A stretch of DNA of 51,338 bases from Eubacteriales bacterium (GTDB lineage: Bacteria > Bacillota > Clostridia > Oscillospirales > Oscillospiraceae): contig JAUMWJ010000011.1 in the NCBI GenBank assembly GCA_030529655.1, positions 1-51,338 of the forward strand. Reading direction: 5' to 3'. Of the stretch, positions 8,354-51,338 are shown in pieces; within the stretch, counting starts at the first letter, position 1, and every line of letters begins with the position of its first letter. The notes below the pieces were generated by a model that saw nothing but the letters and a program-made list of their open reading frames with translations, did no database searches and was not told where the DNA came from. Position numbers and translations under genes: made by a program.

Positions 8354-8432
8354 AGCTGTCTCCTCCTGTCTCTCCATTAATCATAGCAAAATTCGACAGG
8401 ATATGCAATTCTTATTTCGCCCATGCTTTATA

Positions 8433-8468
8433 AAAAATCCGGCAATGCGATCGCATTGCCGGATTTTT
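8433..8468 (-). terminator. Terminator closing the SipW/TasA-like operon
   Basis: A nearly perfect palindrome (AAATCCGGCAATGCGA with TCGCATTGCCGGATTT) is flanked by A/T runs. It lies about 95 bp downstream of the last exported-protein gene. Confidence 0.85.
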
Positions 8469-8562
8469 GTGATATTGTCCGTACGAAAACTTCCTCGCTC
8501 AAAACCTGTGTATCCCTTTGGTTACCGTCCAAGCCGTTTTTTCTCAGCACATAAAGTGCGGC

Positions 8563-9219
8563 TTATTCTGCCGATGTATCAGTGGGATTTTCAGAGTTTT
8601 CAGGGGTTTCGGTTTCTTCAATTTGTGTCGGCTGTTCGGATTCTTTTATTTCAGGCGACGGTGACTGCACTGGATTGGGTGCAGAAACCTTTGGGGGCAG
8701 CGCAGATTGCATCGGTGCAGATTGTGTCGGCGTATGGTTGCCGTTTACCGTGGCGTTATTACTACCAATTTCCCCTGTTCCCGAATAGGTGCCCCAGATG
8801 GCTTGGAAAGAAATGCTGTCACAGTTTTTCACTGTAAAGGACAGTGTGCCATTCTTTGCAATTGGTGCGGTATGTTTCTCCGTGCCATCCACAGTGACCT
8901 TGCAGAAACCGGTCTTTCCTGTTCCCTTCGCCTTCAGTGTCACGGTATAAGTTTTGCTTGGATCAAGCGTATATGTTCCATTTGAAGAGGAAACCGTAGT
9001 ATCGCCATCCTTAACCTCTACATCAACATCATAGTTTGCCGCCTGGATGGTAATGACCTGACTGGTGACCGTGTCGGTGTACCATGCCCAAGTCGTACCT
9101 ATCAGGCAGATCAGACAAACGACGATGCCAATAACAGATGCCACAATCGATCTTGTCATGTCCTGTTCCGTAACCTTTTTATGCTTCGATGGCTCATATT
9201 GTCCATGAATAAGTCGCAA
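8563..9219 (-). CDS. Exported protein with SipW-type signal peptide and Pro/Ser/Glu tail
   Basis: 218 residues. A basic N-terminus precedes one hydrophobic segment (about 24-44) ending GTTWAWYTDTVTSQVITIQA. This matches the SipW-dependent signal pattern AWF/YTD with a downstream conserved strand, as in TasA and camelysin. A single small beta-domain (about 50-150, YDVDVEVKDGDTTVSSSNGTY) follows. The last 65 residues are low-complexity, rich in Pro, Ser, Gln and Glu, like a wall-spanning or spacer region without a sorting motif. The start is TTG, six bases after GGGAGGGG. It is the last gene of the cluster. Role in a surface fibre is inferred. Confidence 0.75.
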   Translation of the reverse strand: MRLIHGQYEPSKHKKVTEQDMTRSIVASVIGIVVCLICLIGTTWAWYTDTVTSQVITIQAANYDVDVEVKDGDTTVSSSNGTYTLDPSKTYTVTLKAKGTGKTGFCKVTVDGTEKHTAPIAKNGTLSFTVKNCDSISFQAIWGTYSGTGEIGSNNATVNGNHTPTQSAPMQSALPPKVSAPNPVQSPSPEIKESEQPTQIEETETPENSENPTDTSAE

Positions 9220-9244
9220 GTCAGACCCCTCCCATCCTCATAAT

Positions 9245-9311
9245 GCAGCGGTCAAAAGATACAAAGTATTCCTTATATCCTTTGATCGCTGCCCGACCGC
9301 AAAGGGTCGGG
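9245..9311 (-). repeat. Double-hairpin element, copy A
   Basis: Stem 1 is GCAGCGGTCAAAAGATA (9245-9261) with TATCCTTTGATCGCTGC (9276-9292). Stem 2 is CCCGACC (9292-9298) with GGTCGGG (9305-9311). It sits between the stop at 9328 and the start at 9219. No T run follows in transcript direction, so it is not a standard terminator. Copies B, C and D share the architecture. Confidence 0.75.
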
Positions 9312-9327
9312 TAGCCGTATGTATTTC

Positions 9328-9993
9328 TTATGGTATTTGCTCGATAGTGCCCGTCTGTGACGCGGTCACATTGACGCCAAGATCCACTCGAGGCACCTGC
9401 GTGCCGCGATAATTCGCCTCGTTGCCAACCACTTCCGGCATATACACCACGATCGCCGCAAACTCTTCCGCATCTGGTGCTAATTGATGGCGGTGCTGGG
9501 CAAAGCTATTCAGCGGATTGGCGGCAATATTGCGAGCACCGTGACGGTCGGCAATCTGCTGCATAAGCTCCGCTTCATTTGTGCCGAAAACAACACCGAA
9601 TTTCAAATATTGCGGCAGATGGATCACTGCGCCGGTTTCTGTTTTGCCATCCACCCAGTTATCCAAAATGACAGAAAAGCGATAGTCAAAATCTACATTG
9701 CCTGCGTTTTTAATTTTCACATACACTGTCTGCGTATAACCGGGCTCATACAGCGCCTCATCATCAAAAATCTTCGTGGTTTCATCGACCTGTTCATAGA
9801 CAAAGTGACCGTTGCCTTGATCGACCCTGTGGTAAAGCTCCACACTGACATCGCCGATTACAAATGTATTGACGGCCTTTTGGGAGGTGTCGGTAAACCA
9901 TGCCAATGTGGAGGTTGCTCCCAATATGACCCAGACCAATATCAAGAGGATACTGATTGAAAGCGCCGTTTTTGTGAAAGTTTTACGCTTCAA
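9328..9993 (-). CDS. TasA/camelysin-like protein with SipW-type signal peptide
   Basis: 221 residues. A hydrophobic segment (about 10-33) ends TSTLAWFTDTSQKAVNTFVIGDVSVEL, the clearest SipW-cognate signal in the cluster. The mature part is a predicted beta-sandwich with YVKIKNAGNVDFDYRFSV, a pattern seen in TasA-like fibre subunits. The start is TTG (9993), seven bases after AGAGGG and four bases after the preceding stop, so translation is coupled to the anchor protein. Cleavage by one of the two SipW-type peptidases upstream is inferred. Confidence 0.75.
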   Translation of the reverse strand: MKRKTFTKTALSISILLILVWVILGATSTLAWFTDTSQKAVNTFVIGDVSVELYHRVDQGNGHFVYEQVDETTKIFDDEALYEPGYTQTVYVKIKNAGNVDFDYRFSVILDNWVDGKTETGAVIHLPQYLKFGVVFGTNEAELMQQIADRHGARNIAANPLNSFAQHRHQLAPDAEEFAAIVVYMPEVVGNEANYRGTQVPRVDLGVNVTASQTGTIEQIP

Positions 9994-9997
9994 TACC

Positions 9998-10675
9998 TCA
10001 CCCTCTTTTCTCTGTTTCGTCGTCCTTGTTCCTCTTTTTCCAAAGCACCAGCCATATGACCAGTCCTGCCGCGCATACAGCGGCTATCCCGATCCATAGA
10101 CCCAGGTTGGTTTCATCGCCGGTTTGCGGCTGCGGATCGGTATTTTCTACAGGCAACTCTTCTACCATAAACTGCCACTGAACCGCACCCAGCTTCTGTT
10201 GATAGATATTATCAAGACTGGTAGGCACCGTCAGCGTGACATCCAACTGAGTCTTGCCGCCGGAATACAGTGTACCCAGCAGCATCCAGTTGTTCAATCC
10301 TGCGCTTTCATTGGCGGCTGCGTCAAATAGAGGAGTATCCTCTGCCTTTTTGACCGTCAGATGCAGTTCCTTCAAAAACTCATTGGATGCTTCATCATTT
10401 GCACCGCGAATACGCAGATAGATTTTTACCTTGACTTTTTTGTTGGCGTTGTTCTTCACCTCGATCTTTTGCCTCAGCACATCGCCGGGCATCACATCCT
10501 TAAAATTAGGAAACAGATCGGTGGGTGAATATTTGCTGCCCGGAGCGAATATGAACTCGCCGGCATTGCCGCTGTAAGTGACATTGGCATCCGCCGCCAG
10601 CGCCTGAACCGGAGCTGTACATAGCAACAGCAGCATAAAGAAGCATGACATCATTCTGCTCATTTTTTTCTTCAT
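9998..10675 (-). CDS. Sec-exported surface protein with LPXTG-like sorting signal
   Basis: 225 residues. An ordinary Sec signal peptide (KKKMSRMMSCFFMLLLLC, then APVQALAADA as type I cleavage site) distinguishes it from its SipW-type neighbours. The mature domain starts NVTYSGNAGEFIF and includes IEVKNNANKKVKVKIYLRIRG, a beta-strand pattern like the other subunits. The C-terminus reads QPQTGDETN, a membrane segment, then KKRNKDDETEKRG, which is the form of a sortase sorting signal with Q in place of L. It may anchor the fibre to the wall. The start ATG at 10675 is inferred from GAGG eight bases upstream; no sortase gene is in the window. Confidence 0.75.
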   Translation of the reverse strand: MKKKMSRMMSCFFMLLLLCTAPVQALAADANVTYSGNAGEFIFAPGSKYSPTDLFPNFKDVMPGDVLRQKIEVKNNANKKVKVKIYLRIRGANDEASNEFLKELHLTVKKAEDTPLFDAAANESAGLNNWMLLGTLYSGGKTQLDVTLTVPTSLDNIYQQKLGAVQWQFMVEELPVENTDPQPQTGDETNLGLWIGIAAVCAAGLVIWLVLWKKRNKDDETEKRG

Positions 10676-10685
10676 AGCCACTGCC

Positions 10686-11240
10686 TCAACTTTCCGTCGG
10701 CCAGCCGAGAACATTCATCGGCGATGTTGCCGGATTGTTCTCACTCTGTACCGCATAGGCCTTGACGGTAAGTGTCAGCGTCTTGTCCAGATAGCTGGTA
10801 TCCATACTGCCGGCTATCTTGACCTGCGTAAACAGCTTTTCCGTTACGGCGCCGGGCTGAACCGGCTTGTTGTAATAATAGAATCCGTCATTACCGGCGA
10901 TCCAGTCATCCAGATTCAGGTCAAGCTCAAATAAATCGGCAGAGAGACTGTCATCATCAATGCCGTTTTCCAATTTTACGCGCAGCCAGAAAGAATGATT
11001 GCCGATATTGGCAACCGTCACCTTTTTGGCAATCGTACTGCCGGGCATAACATAAACGCCTTCTTCGGGGAAATCCTGATCGCCCATTTTTTCGATGATC
11101 TCCATTTTAATATCACCGCTGGTGATCACATTGGTGGCCGCACCCGACACCGTGTAGTACGCCACCGTTTCTTGGGTTAAAAGCGTAACAAGCGATGCCG
11201 CCAAGGCAAGCATACACATCATAAACTTCGAGTGCCGCAC
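10686..11240 (-). CDS. Exported protein with SipW-type signal peptide
   Basis: 184 residues with GTG start at 11240, six bases after AAGGAGGG. A hydrophobic segment (about 7-26) ends TVAYYTVSGAATNVITSGDIKMEI, a SipW-type signal. The mature domain contains YVMPGSTIAKKVTVANIGNHSFWLRVKLENG, the beta-sandwich pattern of TasA-like proteins. First gene of the distal four-gene unit (gaps 10 bp, 4 bp, then 108 bp). It has its own candidate promoter at 11354-11384. Confidence 0.75.
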   Translation of the reverse strand: MRHSKFMMCMLALAASLVTLLTQETVAYYTVSGAATNVITSGDIKMEIIEKMGDQDFPEEGVYVMPGSTIAKKVTVANIGNHSFWLRVKLENGIDDDSLSADLFELDLNLDDWIAGNDGFYYYNKPVQPGAVTEKLFTQVKIAGSMDTSYLDKTLTLTVKAYAVQSENNPATSPMNVLGWPTES

Positions 11241-11353
11241 GTCAGATCCCTCCTTCTGTTTATAGGTAACCGTCCACATCATATATTGTCGGCGCTGCTG
11301 CTGACAATGCAGGACGCATTCGGATATATCTTACCGCTAATCGTTTCTTTTTT

Positions 11354-11384
11354 AGTATACTGCACTTGCGTTTTTTTTCGTCAA
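11354..11384 (-). promoter_or_regulatory. Possible internal promoter of the distal surface-protein genes
   Basis: TTGACG (11379-11384) and TATACT (11354-11359) lie 19 bp apart, a long spacer. It is in the otherwise gene-free 349-bp gap 11241-11589, which also holds hairpin copy B and a weak stem ATTGTC/GACAAT at 11286-11309. Confidence 0.45.
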
Positions 11385-11508
11385 GTATGTTCCCGTGTTT
11401 GATTCAGCGTTCCTTATTTTTGTAAAACCCCTATGCGTATAAGATATTTTCACATCCCAAATGCAAACACAGGCCATCGCTGTATCATATCAAGTTTTCA
11501 TATCTGCA

Positions 11509-11573
11509 CGGTGATCAAAACACACAAAGACAATGCGTGTTTTGATCACCGCCCGACCCCGTACAGGGTCGGG
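11509..11573 (-). repeat. Double-hairpin element, copy B
   Basis: Stem 1 is a perfect 15 bp, CGGTGATCAAAACAC (11509-11523) with GTGTTTTGATCACCG (11537-11551). Stem 2 is CCCGACCC (11552-11559) with GGGTCGGG (11566-11573). It follows the stop at 11590. No T run follows stem 1. Confidence 0.8.
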
Positions 11574-11589
11574 TAGTGGGGTTGATAAT

Positions 11590-12372
11590 TTAGTCGGTCA
11601 CAAAGTTGGGCAGCTTTGTGGAGTCGGTCGTAGGATCACCGAATGCGGCATTCAGCGCGGAAGCGGCATCAGTAAAGCCATCGGCCTGTACTGCCTGCGT
11701 AGCGACATAGATCGTAATGGGCTTATCTGCTTTCTGAGTGGAGGTATAGTTGCCTTTCACCAGATAGCCATCAGCGTTCACATCAGTTTTCTCATCCAGG
11801 TATACACCCTTCAAAACGCGAGTGGTGGTTGCATCCTTCGCAAGGGCATCCGTATATGTAGCCATATAGACGTTGTAAACAACACCGTTAATAGTTTTTT
11901 CTATCACAATCCAGTTGCCACTGGCATTTTTCCAATTCCAACCGGTAAAGTTGGAGTTGAAATGCAGCATGTTGTTGCTGGCAGTATCATCATCCAGTGT
12001 CTTGGGGATGGCAATAAAGGTGCGGACATAGGCGGGGTTATTGCCGTCGTTCGTAACGGTAACGATCTTGTCCTGATAGTTCTTGGCATTACCAGGGTTG
12101 ACTGCTTCATTTGCACCGTTGTTACCAACGCTGCCGACGATAGGCAGCAAAACCTTGTTCTGCACGAAAGGCTCCAGCTCATTATCGATAGGATTGCCAT
12201 TTTCGTTCAATTTACGCTGCTGCTCATTCTGCACAATGTGGATCTTGCCGATGGTGAAAACATTGGTTGCCTGATCCTTGGCGGTAAACCAAGCGAGAGA
12301 TGTGCCGATCACTGCGATGGCAGCAATAATAGCCACAACAGCCAAGGCAAGAATCTTTTTCTTTGCTTTCAT
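11590..12372 (-). CDS. TasA-like major fibre-subunit candidate, SipW-dependent
   Basis: 260 residues, the largest exported protein of the cluster. After KAKKK and a hydrophobic segment (about 6-27) comes GTSLAWFTAKDQATNVFTIGKIHI, a textbook SipW-type signal and first strand. The mature part has VLLPIVGSVGNNGANEAVNP, then KIVTVTNDGNNPAYVRTFIAIP, as in TasA/BsaA-like proteins that polymerise into biofilm fibres. RBS AGAGGA precedes the ATG. It lies 56 bp after a signal peptidase gene, mirroring the sipW-tasA pairing in Bacillus. Polymer formation is inferred. Confidence 0.8.
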   Translation of the reverse strand: MKAKKKILALAVVAIIAAIAVIGTSLAWFTAKDQATNVFTIGKIHIVQNEQQRKLNENGNPIDNELEPFVQNKVLLPIVGSVGNNGANEAVNPGNAKNYQDKIVTVTNDGNNPAYVRTFIAIPKTLDDDTASNNMLHFNSNFTGWNWKNASGNWIVIEKTINGVVYNVYMATYTDALAKDATTTRVLKGVYLDEKTDVNADGYLVKGNYTSTQKADKPITIYVATQAVQADGFTDAASALNAAFGDPTTDSTKLPNFVTD

Positions 12373-12428
12373 GGTTTTCTTCCTCTCAAAAAAATTTTAT
12401 ATAAGCGGGAATCCACTAATATACGCTT

Positions 12429-12962
12429 TTACTGCATTACTTCCTCTTTTAATTTCTTCTTGCCTTTGATGATGTCAGGCACAAAAACAACCAGCAGCAG
12501 CGCAAGGCCGCTTGCCACGGCAATGTAAGTGCCGGGAGGATTCTGCACCCAGGCGGAAACATAGCCCAGATACGGAAGGGCAAATATCGGCTTGCCGATC
12601 AGATTATTGTAATGCACAGGATTGGCATCCGCTGCTTCATTGGCATCACCCTTGGTGTAGAACCAATGATTATCTGCATCAATTTCGACCACTCTATGTG
12701 TTGCCACCACCAGATCCTCGTTCAGGACAAAGGTAATGGGATCTCCGACTTTGATGTCCTTAGCGTCAACCTTTTTCACATAAATCAGGTCCCCCACACT
12801 GTATGTAGGTTCCATAGATCCGGAAATCACCGTGTAAACATCCAGTCCCACCAGTCTTGCGCCCATCAACAGCACTGCGAACAGAACCACCAGGCAGACC
12901 AAAACGGTGGAGATAACATTCCACGCTTTTTGCAGCTTTCCGTTCGATTGATTTGTTTCCAT
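12429..12962 (-). CDS. sipW: SipW-type (ER-type) signal peptidase I, second copy
   Basis: 177 residues with membrane segments at about 15-40 and 145-163. The catalytic Ser is in ISGSMEP (Ser49) and a His replaces the usual Lys at ATHR (His89); GDANEAAD follows. That is the archaeal/ER Ser-His arrangement typical of SipW, which releases TasA-like preproteins at the outer face of the membrane. Length equals the family's usual 180-190. The ATG at 12962 is chosen because AAAGGAG lies eight bases upstream. Flanked by two TasA-like genes. Confidence 0.9.
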   Translation of the reverse strand: METNQSNGKLQKAWNVISTVLVCLVVLFAVLLMGARLVGLDVYTVISGSMEPTYSVGDLIYVKKVDAKDIKVGDPITFVLNEDLVVATHRVVEIDADNHWFYTKGDANEAADANPVHYNNLIGKPIFALPYLGYVSAWVQNPPGTYIAVASGLALLLVVFVPDIIKGKKKLKEEVMQ

Positions 12963-12997
12963 GTCGTTTTGCTCCTTTAAAACCGTATTGCCATCAA

Positions 12998-13060
12998 CAG
13001 TGAACAAAGGATACAAATACTCTTTATATCCTTTGTTCGCTGCCCAAACGATCCGTTTGG
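12998..13060 (-). repeat. Double-hairpin element, copy C
   Basis: Stem 1 is CAGTGAACAAAGGATA (12998-13013) with TATCCTTTGTTCGCTG (13027-13042). Stem 2 is CCAAACG (13044-13050) with CGTTTGG (13054-13060): a different sequence from copies A, B and D but the same pairing. It lies between the TasA-like gene ending at 13111 and sipW. Confidence 0.75.
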
Positions 13061-13110
13061 ACAGCGGAAATCAGTCATCTGAAATTCTGATACTACCGTT
13101 TTGCTTGCCC

Positions 13111-13761
13111 TTAGTTTGCCGTCAGCAGTGCAAAAGCGCCTTGTGCATTGGTGACAGTTGCGGGCAGGTTGTCAGCCTGAATGGCTTCAGCCACGATATC
13201 CAGGGTAAAATCAGTCATGCCGGCAAAGTCGGCCTGCACAAACTGAGTGGGAATCGTCACAGAGGTGAAGAGAATTTCATCACTGTTCGGAGCCAACACG
13301 CGGTTGAGATAGTACACATATGTAAGCGTATCACCATTTGTATCTGCGATAACTTCACCGCGCGTCCACTTAGCAGCATCATAACCGCCAAAAATAGTTG
13401 CCAAATCGGAGATGCCGTACTTGTTGCAAGCAGTCGTCCATGCGTTGGCGTGGTTGACGGTTACCTTCACGCGAGCATACTCATTGTATGCACCTGTGTT
13501 CTGAATGGTGGGGTCCTTGCTCAGCTGAGAGCCGGGCAGAATGTTTTCAAAGGTAAGACCAACATCTTCCTTGTCACCATTCGCTTTATGCTCAAACAGA
13601 TCGATGGAAAAATCGACTTTATCTTCGCTGTCGGTAGCCACTTTGAAAGTATTTTTTACCTCATCCTTTGCGTTGAACCATGCCAAAGATCCCACGGAGA
13701 GGATCGCCACCACGCACAGTACCAGAGCCAGCGTCAGGACCTTCTTCTTGTTCATTTTCAT
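13111..13761 (-). CDS. TasA-like protein with SipW-type signal peptide
   Basis: 216 residues. KMNKKK and a hydrophobic segment (about 8-25) lead to VGSLAWFNAKDEVKNTFKVA, the SipW-cognate signal. The mature domain has FENILPGSQLSKDPTIQNTGAYNEYARVKVTV, a typical TasA/camelysin strand pair. AAGGAGG lies seven bases before the ATG. It is the second gene of the operon, between the two signal peptidases. Signal region closely resembles that of 11590-12372, so the two probably share a peptidase and polymer. Confidence 0.8.
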   Translation of the reverse strand: MKMNKKKVLTLALVLCVVAILSVGSLAWFNAKDEVKNTFKVATDSEDKVDFSIDLFEHKANGDKEDVGLTFENILPGSQLSKDPTIQNTGAYNEYARVKVTVNHANAWTTACNKYGISDLATIFGGYDAAKWTRGEVIADTNGDTLTYVYYLNRVLAPNSDEILFTSVTIPTQFVQADFAGMTDFTLDIVAEAIQADNLPATVTNAQGAFALLTAN

Positions 13762-13819
13762 AGTTGCTTCCTCCTTTCTTCAAAACTACCGTCTTTTGAT
13801 ATCGATATCTCATATCAAA

Positions 13820-13888
13820 CGACGATTAAAAGGCACAAGCAATGATCTTGCGCCTTTTAATCGCCGCCCGACCTCAAAAGAGGTCGGG
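13820..13888 (-). repeat. Double-hairpin element, copy D
   Basis: Stem 1 is CGACGATTAAAAGGC (13820-13834) with GCCTTTTAATCGCCG (13852-13866). Stem 2 is CCCGACCTC (13867-13875) with GAGGTCGGG (13880-13888). It lies between the first signal peptidase and the first TasA-like gene. Further along the transcript a third stem, TTTGATAT/ATATCAAA, follows. Confidence 0.8.
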
Positions 13889-13898
13889 GCATGCGGAA

Positions 13899-14624
13899 TT
13901 ATTGCGGATCGGGCTTGCTCTCTGTTTCTGCCGGAGCGGAAGCAGCAGCTGCTGACGCATTCTGTGCCATCTGTGCCTTCAAAGCCAACAGCTCCGCCAT
14001 CATTTCTTCAGAACGCTTACGCTCCTCAGCGATCTCCGCCTTTTCAGCCTGCAGCTCGGCTACCTGCTCCGACTTGTACTGTCGGAACAGCTTCACCGTA
14101 TTCAACGCCTGCATACCGATCAGAACGAGGAACGGAACAAGAATGCAAACGATATAGCCGGGTACGGTCTTTAAGAACTGGAAGAAGGTGCCGAGTTTTG
14201 CAACGCTGAACTGGTATTTACCGTTAATAAACGGGTAAGTTACTACCAATTCATCGTCGGTACCGGTGGTCGTACCGTATGTAATGAAGCCGGGATCACC
14301 GTTGGCATCTGTGGTTCGGGCACGAATCTTATGGGTAACAACTTCGCCGTAATTTTCCTGGTTTTGAGAAGTGTAGGAGATGATGTCGCCCTCTTGCAGC
14401 GTGTCGGGATCAACATTCTTGACAAACACCACATCGCCTGCGCTGAAATCTGTGGCACTCATTGAATCGGACAGCACGATGAATGCCTTAAAACCGAACA
14501 AATTTCTGTCGTTTCGATTAAAAGTCGCCACCGAAATGATAGTAAACACCATCACCAAAACAGCAATCACTGCTACCAGAATGGTAAAAACTTTTTTTAC
14601 TGTTTGCCATGTCTTTTTCATCAT
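13899..14624 (-). CDS. SipW-type signal peptidase I with cytoplasmic coiled-coil tail
   Basis: 241 residues, about 60 longer than a usual SipW. Membrane segments lie at about 13-35 and 155-175. The nucleophile is in LSDSMSA (Ser54) and the general base in VVTHKI (His98), the Ser-His form. The acidic GDxN motif of the other copy is replaced by TGTDDE. After the second membrane segment a roughly 65-residue extension forms a charged coiled coil (VAELQAEKAEIAEERKR) and ends in an Ala/Pro/Glu tail. It is the first gene of the operon. Division of labour with the 12429-12962 enzyme is inferred; an ATG three bases downstream is also possible. Confidence 0.88.
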   Translation of the reverse strand: MMKKTWQTVKKVFTILVAVIAVLVMVFTIISVATFNRNDRNLFGFKAFIVLSDSMSATDFSAGDVVFVKNVDPDTLQEGDIISYTSQNQENYGEVVTHKIRARTTDANGDPGFITYGTTTGTDDELVVTYPFINGKYQFSVAKLGTFFQFLKTVPGYIVCILVPFLVLIGMQALNTVKLFRQYKSEQVAELQAEKAEIAEERKRSEEMMAELLALKAQMAQNASAAAASAPAETESKPDPQ

Positions 14625-14728
14625 TTTTACTCCTTACATATGTGATCTCGACAGCTTTTATGCTGCCGCAAAAAGTCGACCGTATGATTCTCTAGGCATA
14701 CTAAGCGCAATGATACATTCTCTTTTTC

Positions 14729-25254: not shown

Positions 25255-25299
25255 AAAAAAGGCACTGATACATTTCTTACAAATGTATCAGTGCCTTTT
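25255..25299 (-). terminator. Terminator of spo0A
   Basis: AAGGCACTGATACATTT with AAATGTATCAGTGCCTT, a 17-bp perfect stem, followed by TTTTTT on the minus strand. Confidence 0.9.
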
Positions 25300-43765: not shown

Positions 43766-43803
43766 AAAAGGCACAAACACTATATATAGTGTTTGTGCCT
43801 TTT
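43766..43803 (-). terminator. Terminator after the coiled-coil protein gene
   Basis: AAGGCACAAACACTATA with TATAGTGTTTGTGCCTT, a perfect 17-bp palindrome flanked by A and T runs, lies about 90 bp downstream of the stop. Confidence 0.85.
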
Positions 43804-51079: not shown

Positions 51080-51154
51080 GCGGGTGTAGCACAATGGCCA
51101 GGGCACCAGCCTTCCAAGCTGGGGATGCGGGTTCGATTCCCGTCACCCGCTCCA
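51080..51154 (+). tRNA. tRNA-Gly (TCC anticodon)
   Basis: 75 bases. Acceptor GCGGGTG pairs with CACCCGC, T is the discriminator and CCA is encoded. The anticodon loop CTTCCAA is on stem CCAGC/GCTGG, and the T loop reads GGTTCGATTCC. It reads GGA/GGG glycine codons. Confidence 0.96.
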
Positions 51155-51165
51155 ACTGTCATTAT

Positions 51166-51242
<77 letters not shown>

Positions 51243-51289
51243 CTTTTTAAGGAGCATCGTTTAGCAAATTCCCTTGCGGATGTATATGT

Positions 51290-51338
<49 letters not shown>

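What the first reader, a model, noticed from the sequence alone, without database searches (positions are those of the whole stretch)
9245..13888. Four copies of a covarying double-hairpin element inside the surface-fibre operon
The 65-70-bp element occurs at 9245-9311, 11509-11573, 12998-13060 and 13820-13888. Each copy has a long A/T-rich stem (15-17 positions, loop with ACAA) directly abutting a short GC-rich stem (mostly CCCGACC/GGTCGGG). All four lie between a stop and the next start. Arms differ among copies but compensate: copy C changed the second stem to CCAAACG/CGTTTGG. No T run follows, so they are not ordinary terminators. They could set stoichiometry by mRNA processing, stabilise 3' ends or bind a regulator. 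None is seen outside this cluster.
Basis: seen in the sequence. Interest (0 to 1): 0.7.

Follow-up and report, generated by a model that had tools for sequence, protein, structure and literature searches.

The report
Conserved double hairpin between fibre genes
Gut Clostridia carry an RNA element not found in the reference catalogue, two back-to-back hairpins placed just after the stop codons of genes for secreted surface fibres, which probably sets how much of each protein is made from one long message.

Summary
Four double hairpins lie between co-directional genes of a SipW/TasA-type fibre operon read on the minus strand. In the RNA a short GC-rich hairpin abuts a 16-21 bp hairpin. They are one RNA family: a covariance model from nine relatives, without window sequence, finds all four (E 2.6e-11 to 2.5e-7) and no other full copy in the genome. 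In 56 copies from 30 genomes and 13 families, 24 of 26 base pairs change on both sides with pairing kept; 0 of 500 shuffles match. Of 65 copies, 64 follow the stop of a same-strand frame (median 24.5 nt) and 63 precede another. In the clusters they follow large SipW-dependent proteins (35 of 53) more often than SipW (7 of 34) or small ones (9 of 60), partly because those lack room. No Rfam family matches. Most score well below ordinary terminators, though copy D scores weakly positive. Best reading: an intercistronic processing and 3'-end-stabilising element setting subunit stoichiometry, like cip-cel stem-loops but sequence-conserved and repeated. The RNA family is near certain; the mechanism is inferred (about 0.45). 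A dedicated binding factor and a weak internal terminator remain open.

The parts
9245..9311 (-). Copy A: short stem 9293-9310, long stem 9245-9292; model match begins 14 nt after the stop of the 9328-9993 gene
   Evidence: fold -39.7 kcal/mol, z -7.0; R2 E 6.7e-11; distance
11509..11573 (-). Copy B: short stem 11552-11573, long stem 11509-11551; model match begins 14 nt after the stop of the 11590-12372 gene; about 260 nt before the next start
   Evidence: fold -47.6, z -7.9; R2 E 6.1e-9
12998..13060 (-). Copy C: short stem with changed but still pairing sequence, then long stem; model match begins 47 nt after the stop of the 13111-13761 gene and ends 30 nt before the SipW start
   Evidence: fold -40.3, z -9.2; R2 E 2.5e-7
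13820..13888 (-). Copy D: short stem 13867-13888, long stem 13820-13866; model match begins 8 nt after the stop of the 13899-14624 peptidase gene
   Evidence: fold -50.0, z -10.6; R2 E 2.6e-11
13899..14624 (-). SipW-like signal peptidase I gene
   Evidence: TIGR02228 62.6 bits, cut-off 51.85
13111..13761 (-). SipW-dependent secreted protein (BsaA/TasA-like)
   Evidence: TIGR04088 28.6 bits, cut-off 19; TIGR04090 30.4 bits, below its cut-off of 60
12429..12962 (-). SipW-type signal peptidase I gene
   Evidence: TIGR02228 112.3 bits (on the longer frame 12429-13016); start taken from the ribosome-site search
11590..12372 (-). SipW-dependent secreted protein
   Evidence: TIGR04088 29.8 bits
10686..11240 (-). 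BsaA-like SipW-dependent protein
   Evidence: TIGR04090 49.6 bits, E 4.2e-13, below cut-off 60 (on the frame 10686-11282)
9998..10714 (-). LPXTG surface protein; overlaps its upstream neighbour, 4 bases from its downstream one; no element at these junctions
   Evidence: TIGR01167 22.9 bits, cut-off 15.9; ORF coordinates
9328..9993 (-). SipW-dependent secreted protein
   Evidence: TIGR04088 26.4 bits
8563..9219 (-). Last gene of the cluster, SipW-dependent-like
   Evidence: TIGR04088 18.6 bits, just under the cut-off of 19
8433..8468 (-). Ordinary intrinsic terminator after the last gene (contrast to the elements)
   Evidence: inverted repeat I6; terminator score 51.9 on this strand

Best explanation
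A structured mRNA element of one family marks junctions of SipW/TasA-type fibre operons. As the polycistronic RNA is made, the short GC-rich hairpin folds about 25 nt after the stop codon and abuts a roughly 20 bp hairpin with a conserved base. I infer that an endonuclease (a double-strand cutter of the RNase III kind on the long stem, or RNase Y in the single strands on either side) cuts the message there. The upstream message then keeps a hairpin as a 3' end resistant to exonucleases while transcription continues into the next gene. Repeating the element gives each segment its own lifetime, so fibre subunits, minor subunits and peptidase are made in different amounts. Shown: position, strand, predicted structure with covariation, conservation, gene association, generally poor fit to terminators. 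Inferred: co-transcription, cutting, protection, stoichiometry, the nuclease.
For: One covarying family: 24 of 26 pairs with double changes, 0 of 500 shuffles, in 56 rows. The model without window rows finds all four window copies. Transcript-sense: an open frame of 150 or more codons ends within 250 nt upstream for 62 of 65 copies in sense and 24 of 65 in antisense; sense folds better in 55 of 65; G-U cells 112 against A-C cells 36 of 1,444. Anchored to the upstream stop: median 24.5 nt, interquartile range 17-42, against 38 and 26-97 to the next start. Operon-internal: 63 of 65 have a same-strand start within 450 nt. Mostly not terminator-like: score above 0 for 5 of 56 full stems and 13 of 56 apical hairpins, against 25-55 for 12 strand readings of ordinary window terminators. 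It follows large SipW-dependent proteins in 35 of 53, SipW in 7 of 34, small SipW-dependent proteins in 9 of 60. The last window gene has an ordinary terminator instead. Precedent: intercistronic stem-loops of the cip-cel operon cut and stabilise mRNA (PMC4423207, PMC10311766, passages).
Against: No RNA ends, decay rates or expression were measured. The different cip-cel stem-loops share no conserved sequence (PMC10311766), whereas this helix does (column 48 G in 52 of 56, column 46 A in 55 of 56), which processing alone need not require. Where at least 90 nt are free the preference shrinks: 33 of 40 large, 6 of 10 SipW, 9 of 28 small, so lack of room explains much of the low SipW figure. In the window itself three copies follow small secreted proteins (216-260 aa) and copy D follows a peptidase, which does not fit 'protect the big fibre gene'. 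Copy D scores as a weak terminator (8.1 apical, 15.2 full stem). 46 of the 75 order genomes with TIGR04088 show no match, so it is dispensable for such operons.
Confidence: 0.45

Rival explanations
1. Binding site for a dedicated trans-acting protein (or RNA) that co-regulates all segments of the fibre operon; the long stem's conserved base is the recognition site and the short stem is scaffold.
For: Short-stem sequence drifts (mean identity 0.48 between families) while the base of the long stem stays at 0.75; copies within a genome are more alike than shuffled labels give, 0 of 1000 permutations. Apical loop length is free: 5-47 nt in 56 rows, and one copy has over 100 extra nt with the 3' arm kept.
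Against: No candidate factor was identified; sequence reading inside a perfect A-form helix is unusual (recalled); within-genome likeness may be duplication of copies.
Confidence: 0.22
2. Weak internal intrinsic terminator: the apical part of the long stem followed by UUUUGAUU releases some polymerases, lowering downstream genes; read-through RNA closes the long stem over its own U tract.
For: The U-rich stretch is conserved; median T-tract score 4.26 for the apical hairpin; window copy D scores 8.1 (apical) and 15.2 (full stem), and one relative's full stem (26.3) exceeds the lowest control (25.1); copy D is on the terminator-like list of the consensus scan. Internal terminators with poor, paired U tracts exist in cellulolytic Clostridia (PMC9045158, passages). 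Ordinary terminators of this window share the AAAAGGCAC/GTGCCTTTT core (43766-43803, 25257-25299). The 5' flank can pair with the 5' arm, as it could if the 3' arm were absent, and does so over 8 pairs in the partial C30 copy.
Against: Score above 0 in only 13 of 56 (apical) and 5 of 56 (full stem), against 25-55 for ordinary ones; window copies A, B and C are negative both ways. The U stretch is forced by pairing, so its conservation is not independent evidence. C30 still carries a separate strong terminator (score 58.6).
Confidence: 0.17
3. Polarity insulator or antitermination signal (put-, EAR- or LoaP-like) that keeps polymerase going through long operons.
For: Long same-strand clusters; operon-internal position; two adjacent hairpins recall HK022 put RNA (recalled, no call).
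Against: Repeated at several junctions rather than once near the start; no LoaP over its cut-off in the genome; no Rfam match.
Confidence: 0.09
4. DNA-level element: REP-like palindrome or recombination site that shuffles fibre genes.
For: Near-perfect palindromes; copies within a genome are more alike than between genomes; patchy distribution, 3 of 31 congeners.
Against: Gene-sense orientation and G-U excess; not dispersed in the genome; no match to copy D in phages or plasmids and no exact pattern match in viral contigs; no integron integrase over its cut-off.
Confidence: 0.07

Closest known systems
Selective RNA processing and stabilisation (SRPS) stem-loops, cip-cel operon of Clostridium (Ruminiclostridium) cellulolyticum
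   Same: Intercistronic, at the 3' side of genes, mostly without a U run, in an operon for an extracellular multi-subunit structure; several cip-cel regions have two consecutive stem-loops (PMC4423207, PMC10311766, passages).
   Different: The stem-loops of that operon differ from each other in sequence and structure, although orthologous ones occur in related species; here one sequence- and structure-conserved double hairpin with no linker recurs at many junctions and in many families.
Internal terminators of ABC-importer operons in cellulolytic Clostridia
   Same: Operon-internal stem-loop with a poor, paired U tract (PMC9045158, passages).
   Different: Most copies score below zero and far below the window's ordinary terminators; a second GC hairpin abuts directly; different gene class.
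sipW-bsaA operon of Clostridium perfringens
   Same: Same protein system; a predicted terminator after bsaA with read-through into the rest of the operon, giving two transcripts (PMC7395162, passages).
   Different: Described there as a terminator; not compared by sequence here.
put RNA, EAR, LoaP antitermination elements
   Same: RNA hairpins acting on elongation in long operons (recalled; a LoaP paper was seen only in the listing).
   Different: Single promoter-proximal elements (recalled); no LoaP over cut-off; no Rfam hit.

Membership tests
Any Rfam 15 family | covariance-model match at the gathering score | tested here: not met
   only tRNAs in the window; no match at the elements to E 5 in 8400-14700; in seven related loci three sub-threshold matches to E 1, one of them (Acido-Lenti-1, 24.1 bits, gathering 37) touching the 3' edge of the L021 element on the other strand
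SRPS stem-loop | intercistronic stem-loop at the 3' side of a gene in an operon that continues | tested here: met
   64 of 65 after a same-strand stop, 63 of 65 before a same-strand start; co-transcription itself not tested
SRPS stem-loop | no canonical U tract | tested here: met
   mean 2.2 T in the 10 nt after the long stem, 3 of 65 with six or more; median tail score 1.69 in 56 copies against 4.5-5.5 in controls; copy D is an exception at 3.84
SRPS stem-loop | processing site at the stem-loop and higher upstream transcript level correlated with folding energy | not testable with these tools
   no RNA data
Intrinsic terminator | GC-rich hairpin followed directly by a U tract, score in the range of the genome's own terminators | tested here: not met
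   as a family: 13 of 56 apical and 5 of 56 full-stem scores above 0, highest 26.3; controls 25.1-55.1 (scoring formula recalled). Exceptions: copy D weakly positive (15.2) and listed by the scan; one L094 copy inside the control range
REP/BIME-type repeat | dispersed among unrelated genes of one genome, either orientation | tested here: not met
   four full copies, all in one operon and in gene sense
Integron attC array | integron integrase in the genome | tested here: not met
   TIGR02249: four matches, none over the cut-off of 265 bits
LoaP-dependent antitermination | LoaP gene | tested here: not met
   NF033641: one match, 85.8 bits, cut-off 125
put / EAR antitermination RNA | effect on downstream termination | not testable with these tools
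   needs a transcription assay; no Rfam match

The most novel reading that the evidence does not exclude
A new RNA family acting as a two-state intercistronic switch in surface-fibre operons of gut Clostridia. The 5' arm of the long stem pairs either with the flank before the short stem or with its own 3' arm, and a dedicated factor reading the conserved stem base sets, junction by junction, how much of each fibre subunit is made.
Probability: 0.18. Interest if true: 0.85.

Novelty: new variant of a known kind. Interest (0 to 1): 0.62.

Why it matters
Operons for extracellular fibres need very unequal amounts of peptidase, anchor, minor and major subunits. A recurring, sequence-conserved RNA module at their junctions would give a tractable genetic part and a handle on how uncultured gut Clostridia build surface matrix. 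The strong covariation also makes it a ready candidate for an Rfam entry, and its conserved helix base asks which factor reads it.

Tried and rejected
Dispersed repeat: rejected, only four full copies in the genome. Ordinary terminator: rejected for the family by score against 12 strand readings of window terminators plus the C30 terminator; but copy D scores weakly positive and the scan lists it, so a weak internal terminator is kept as a rival, and on rechecking I raised its odds from 0.15 to 0.17. Phage or plasmid origin: no match to copy D in phages or plasmids and no exact match of a consensus pattern in viral contigs; these are narrow tests. attC and LoaP.

Rows dropped: from the 67 non-overlapping hits L081 and L100 were left out of the counts on 65; they look like ordinary terminators and lie in genomes without TIGR04088. 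They were still in the protein sets (L081 upstream only, L100 both sides). L025 (relatives) and L139 (class) also look like terminators and were not used. L085 (65.6 bits, genome without TIGR04088) was kept although its neighbours are not SipW-type.

Extended short stem, flank against own 5' arm: longest helix 4.34 against 3.83 with shuffled flanks, 0 of 500. Mean folding energy -22.05 kcal/mol, against -17.46 (lowest of 60 trials -18.69) with shuffled flanks and -19.44 (lowest -20.20) with flanks of other genomes; but the mean number of pairs (5.0) is not separated from the other-genome control (maximum 5.07), and part of it is simply a short stem longer than the model's eight pairs. Suggestive only.

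A phylum sample gave no further genome at 1e-4 (own only of 398). Caveats: the strand of each hit was chosen by model score, which favours G-U on the modelled strand, so the fold and G-U counts lean that way; the gene-direction count uses the same strand but not G-U scoring. Gene starts, frames and the SipW-cognate pattern are my own heuristics, not a gene caller; the clusters were chosen because they hold an element. E-values are rough (short calibration).
Full report
WHAT IS THERE. The surrounding genes lie on the minus strand: two SipW-type signal peptidases, four proteins with a SipW-dependent-type signal peptide (one of them just under the family cut-off), one BsaA-like protein (below its cut-off) and one LPXTG protein. 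So this is a TasA/BsaA-type fibre or matrix cluster. Read as RNA, each element is a short GC-rich hairpin followed directly by a long hairpin. All four fold far better than shuffles, and in each the minus strand folds better than the plus strand (-39.7/-33.7, -47.6/-42.5, -40.3/-31.2, -50.0/-41.3 kcal/mol). The elements separate the cluster into five segments. Junctions with overlapping or nearly touching genes (10686/9998, 9998/9328) and the short gap between SipW (12429) and 11590-12372 have none. The last gene (8563-9219) is followed by an ordinary terminator (8433-8468).

IS IT ONE FAMILY? Across the four copies 11 of 26 pairs change on both sides and 0 of 500 shuffles match; sliding the pairing by 1-3 columns lowers the paired cells from 97% to 33-49%. 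Model R1 from these four found matches at E 0.1 or better in eight of the 59 other genomes in a sample of 60 relatives, one of which (L025) looks like an ordinary terminator. Nine copies from relatives, with no window row, gave model R2. R2 finds the four window copies at E 2.6e-11, 6.7e-11, 6.1e-9 and 2.5e-7 and nothing else in the genome below E 2 except antisense readings of the same sites. In the order, 32 of 394 genomes and 22 of 168 genera have a match at E 0.001 or better. I read two of these, L081 and L100, as ordinary terminators. In the class 10 of 391 genomes have one at 1e-4, six of them outside the order, one of these doubtful (L139). In the phylum sample only the own genome does, of 398 (model R3). 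Fetched regions gave 113 matches on both strands at E 0.01, 67 non-overlapping.

The 56 best matches, each on its better-scoring strand, come from 30 genomes and 13 families. In them 96.2% of 1,444 pair cells are standard, 24 of 26 pairs change on both sides, 248 cells do so against 56.9 in shuffles, 0 of 500. The rows were aligned with a model of this structure, so counts lean towards it, but the slid controls (32-49% paired) use the same alignment. The two hairpins abut without a linker in 55 of 56.

Consensus of the long stem: CGGCAAUCAAAGGGCAUAA, loop, UGUGCCUUUUGAUUGCCG. Its base is conserved (mean identity 0.75 between families) while the short stem is not (0.48). Copies within a genome are more alike in both parts (0.86 and 0.67; 0 of 1000 permutations reach either). 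The apical loop varies from 5 to 47 nt; one copy carries more than 100 extra nucleotides with the 3' arm kept.

WHERE IT SITS. After dropping L081 and L100, 65 copies remain. Of these, 64 have a same-strand frame ending upstream: median 24.5 nt before the element, interquartile range 17-42. For 63 a same-strand start with a ribosome-site-like sequence follows: median 38 nt, 26-97. A frame of at least 150 codons ends within 250 nt upstream for 62 of 65 in sense and 24 of 65 in antisense. Of 63 upstream proteins (N-terminal 190 residues at most, the two dropped hits included) 44 match TIGR04088 (SipW-dependent signal peptide) and 7 the SipW peptidase. Of 49 downstream proteins not already in the upstream set, 16 match TIGR04090, 16 TIGR04088 and 11 SipW (overlaps between families not resolved). 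In the order sample TIGR04088 is in 75 of 394 genomes. Comparing the two lists by handle, and taking the two samples of 394 to be the same genomes, 29 of the 32 element-positive genomes are among the 75; the exceptions are G258 and G140 (the two dropped hits) and G178 (L085). So 46 of 75 TIGR04088 genomes show no element.

Within the fetched clusters the element follows 35 of 53 large SipW-dependent proteins (400 aa or more), 7 of 34 SipW genes and 9 of 60 small SipW-dependent proteins (Fisher p 5.6e-5 for large against SipW, 2.8e-8 for large against small). Where at least 90 nt are free the counts are 33 of 40, 6 of 10 and 9 of 28, so lack of room accounts for much of the low SipW figure. In the window itself the upstream proteins are small (216, 221 and 260 aa) or a peptidase.

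A second route: a consensus pattern over the collection of 84,980 species genomes gave 28 stretches, titled as Oscillospiraceae, Ruminococcaceae, Tyzzerella, Lachnospiraceae, Eubacterium, Candidatus Avimonas and unassigned Clostridia, most of them metagenome-assembled and many with animal-gut sample names. They hold 33 elements; 23 of 33 have a neighbour that fits a SipW profile or a strict signal-peptide pattern, and that pattern fired on 0 of 127 window frames outside the cluster. Three of these contigs have the same lengths as contigs used above, so the two sets overlap.

Outside the order, L135, L142 and L137 lie in SipW/TasA clusters by eye, while L134, L141, L136 and L138 lie after InlB-repeat surface proteins (PF18998), and for the three tested before a cadherin-like protein (PF12733). 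So the link is to surface-protein operons, mostly but not only SipW-type.

WHAT IT IS NOT. Rfam has no such family. Intrinsic-terminator scores (formula recalled) are above zero for 13 of 56 apical hairpins and 5 of 56 full stems; 12 strand readings of the window's ordinary terminators score 25.1-55.1 and the C30 terminator 58.6. Against this: one L094 copy reaches 26.3, and window copy D scores 8.1 (apical) and 15.2 (full stem) and is on the terminator-like list; copies A, B and C are negative both ways. No copy-D match in phages or plasmids, no exact pattern match in viral contigs. No LoaP and no integron integrase over their cut-offs.

HOW IT PROBABLY WORKS. Position after the stop, stable transcript-sense structure, general absence of a free U tract and continuation into the next gene are the anatomy of SRPS stem-loops. 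In C. cellulolyticum such stem-loops lie at 3' ends of highly transcribed genes, mostly without a U run (28 of 33), and their folding energy correlates with transcript ratio (PMC4423207, passages). In the cip-cel operon they also direct cutting; some regions have two consecutive stem-loops, and in one (IR4) the small upstream stem-loop matters by structure rather than sequence (PMC10311766, passages). Our short stem behaves the same way in evolution: pairing kept, sequence free. What differs is the conserved base of the long stem, which suggests a specific reader, and the use of one module throughout an operon. Processing, protection and stoichiometry are inferences.

A FURTHER OBSERVATION. 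The flank before the short stem can pair with the 5' arm of the long stem, extending the short stem at the cost of the long one. Over 56 rows own flanks give a lower mean energy than shuffled flanks or flanks of other genomes in all 60 trials of each kind, though the pair count does not differ from the latter. In the partial C30 copy, which lacks the 3' arm and has an ordinary terminator downstream, the flank pairs over eight bases. This could be a folding intermediate, a switch, or the form of a terminated message.

LITERATURE. SRPS papers as above. PMC8219983, on predicting such operons, has no occurrence of SipW, surface, biofilm, S-layer or pilus in its main text (find). PMC7395162 reports read-through past a predicted terminator after bsaA (passages). 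PMC8040213, a resource of 3,161 candidate structured RNAs of human microbiomes, has no occurrence of SipW, TasA, camelysin, biofilm or hairpin in its main text; its supplements were not read and could hold this element unnamed. The listings showed no paper that I could recognise as describing it; subscription papers and preprints are not covered.

VERDICT. A real RNA family, absent from Rfam 15 and not recognised in these searches, working most likely like SRPS stem-loops; not filed as a proven SRPS element because its defining behaviour could not be tested.

Noticed in passing
L012 1500-1545 (own genome, contig C30): Partial fifth copy after another SipW-dependent gene: short stem plus the 5' arm of the long stem, followed by an ordinary strong terminator; its upstream flank pairs with the 5' arm over 8 bases.
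   Followed up: partly
L134, L141, L136, L138: Element in other families of the class after InlB-repeat surface proteins (next gene cadherin-like in the three tested), so not restricted to SipW clusters.
   Followed up: partly
window 43766-43803 and 25257-25299: Ordinary terminators with the same AAAAGGCAC/GTGCCTTTT core as the long stem; the element may derive from a terminator hairpin that gained a clamp at its base.
   Followed up: partly
L111 2214-2386, L098 6116-6257, L086 8096-8210, L090 several: Copies with long insertions in the apical loop of the long stem while the stem base is kept.
   Followed up: partly
genus sample: Patchy distribution: only 3 of 31 congeners match at E 0.1, although other families of the order do.
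   Followed up: no
L079 6250-6819 (+) and L099 4818-5387 (-), N-terminal parts: Similar-looking membrane-anchored proteins (325 and 415 aa) recur as the gene directly after an element; not identified.
   Followed up: no
L085 and L098 near 11100: Small cysteine-rich (zinc-ribbon-like) frames next to elements.
   Followed up: no
window 16852-16823 (-): A perfect sigma-70 consensus promoter (TTGACA, 18, TATAAT) about 2.2 kb upstream of the cluster.
   Followed up: no
window 51080-51338 (+): Three tRNA genes in a row at the contig end, the last cut off.
   Followed up: no
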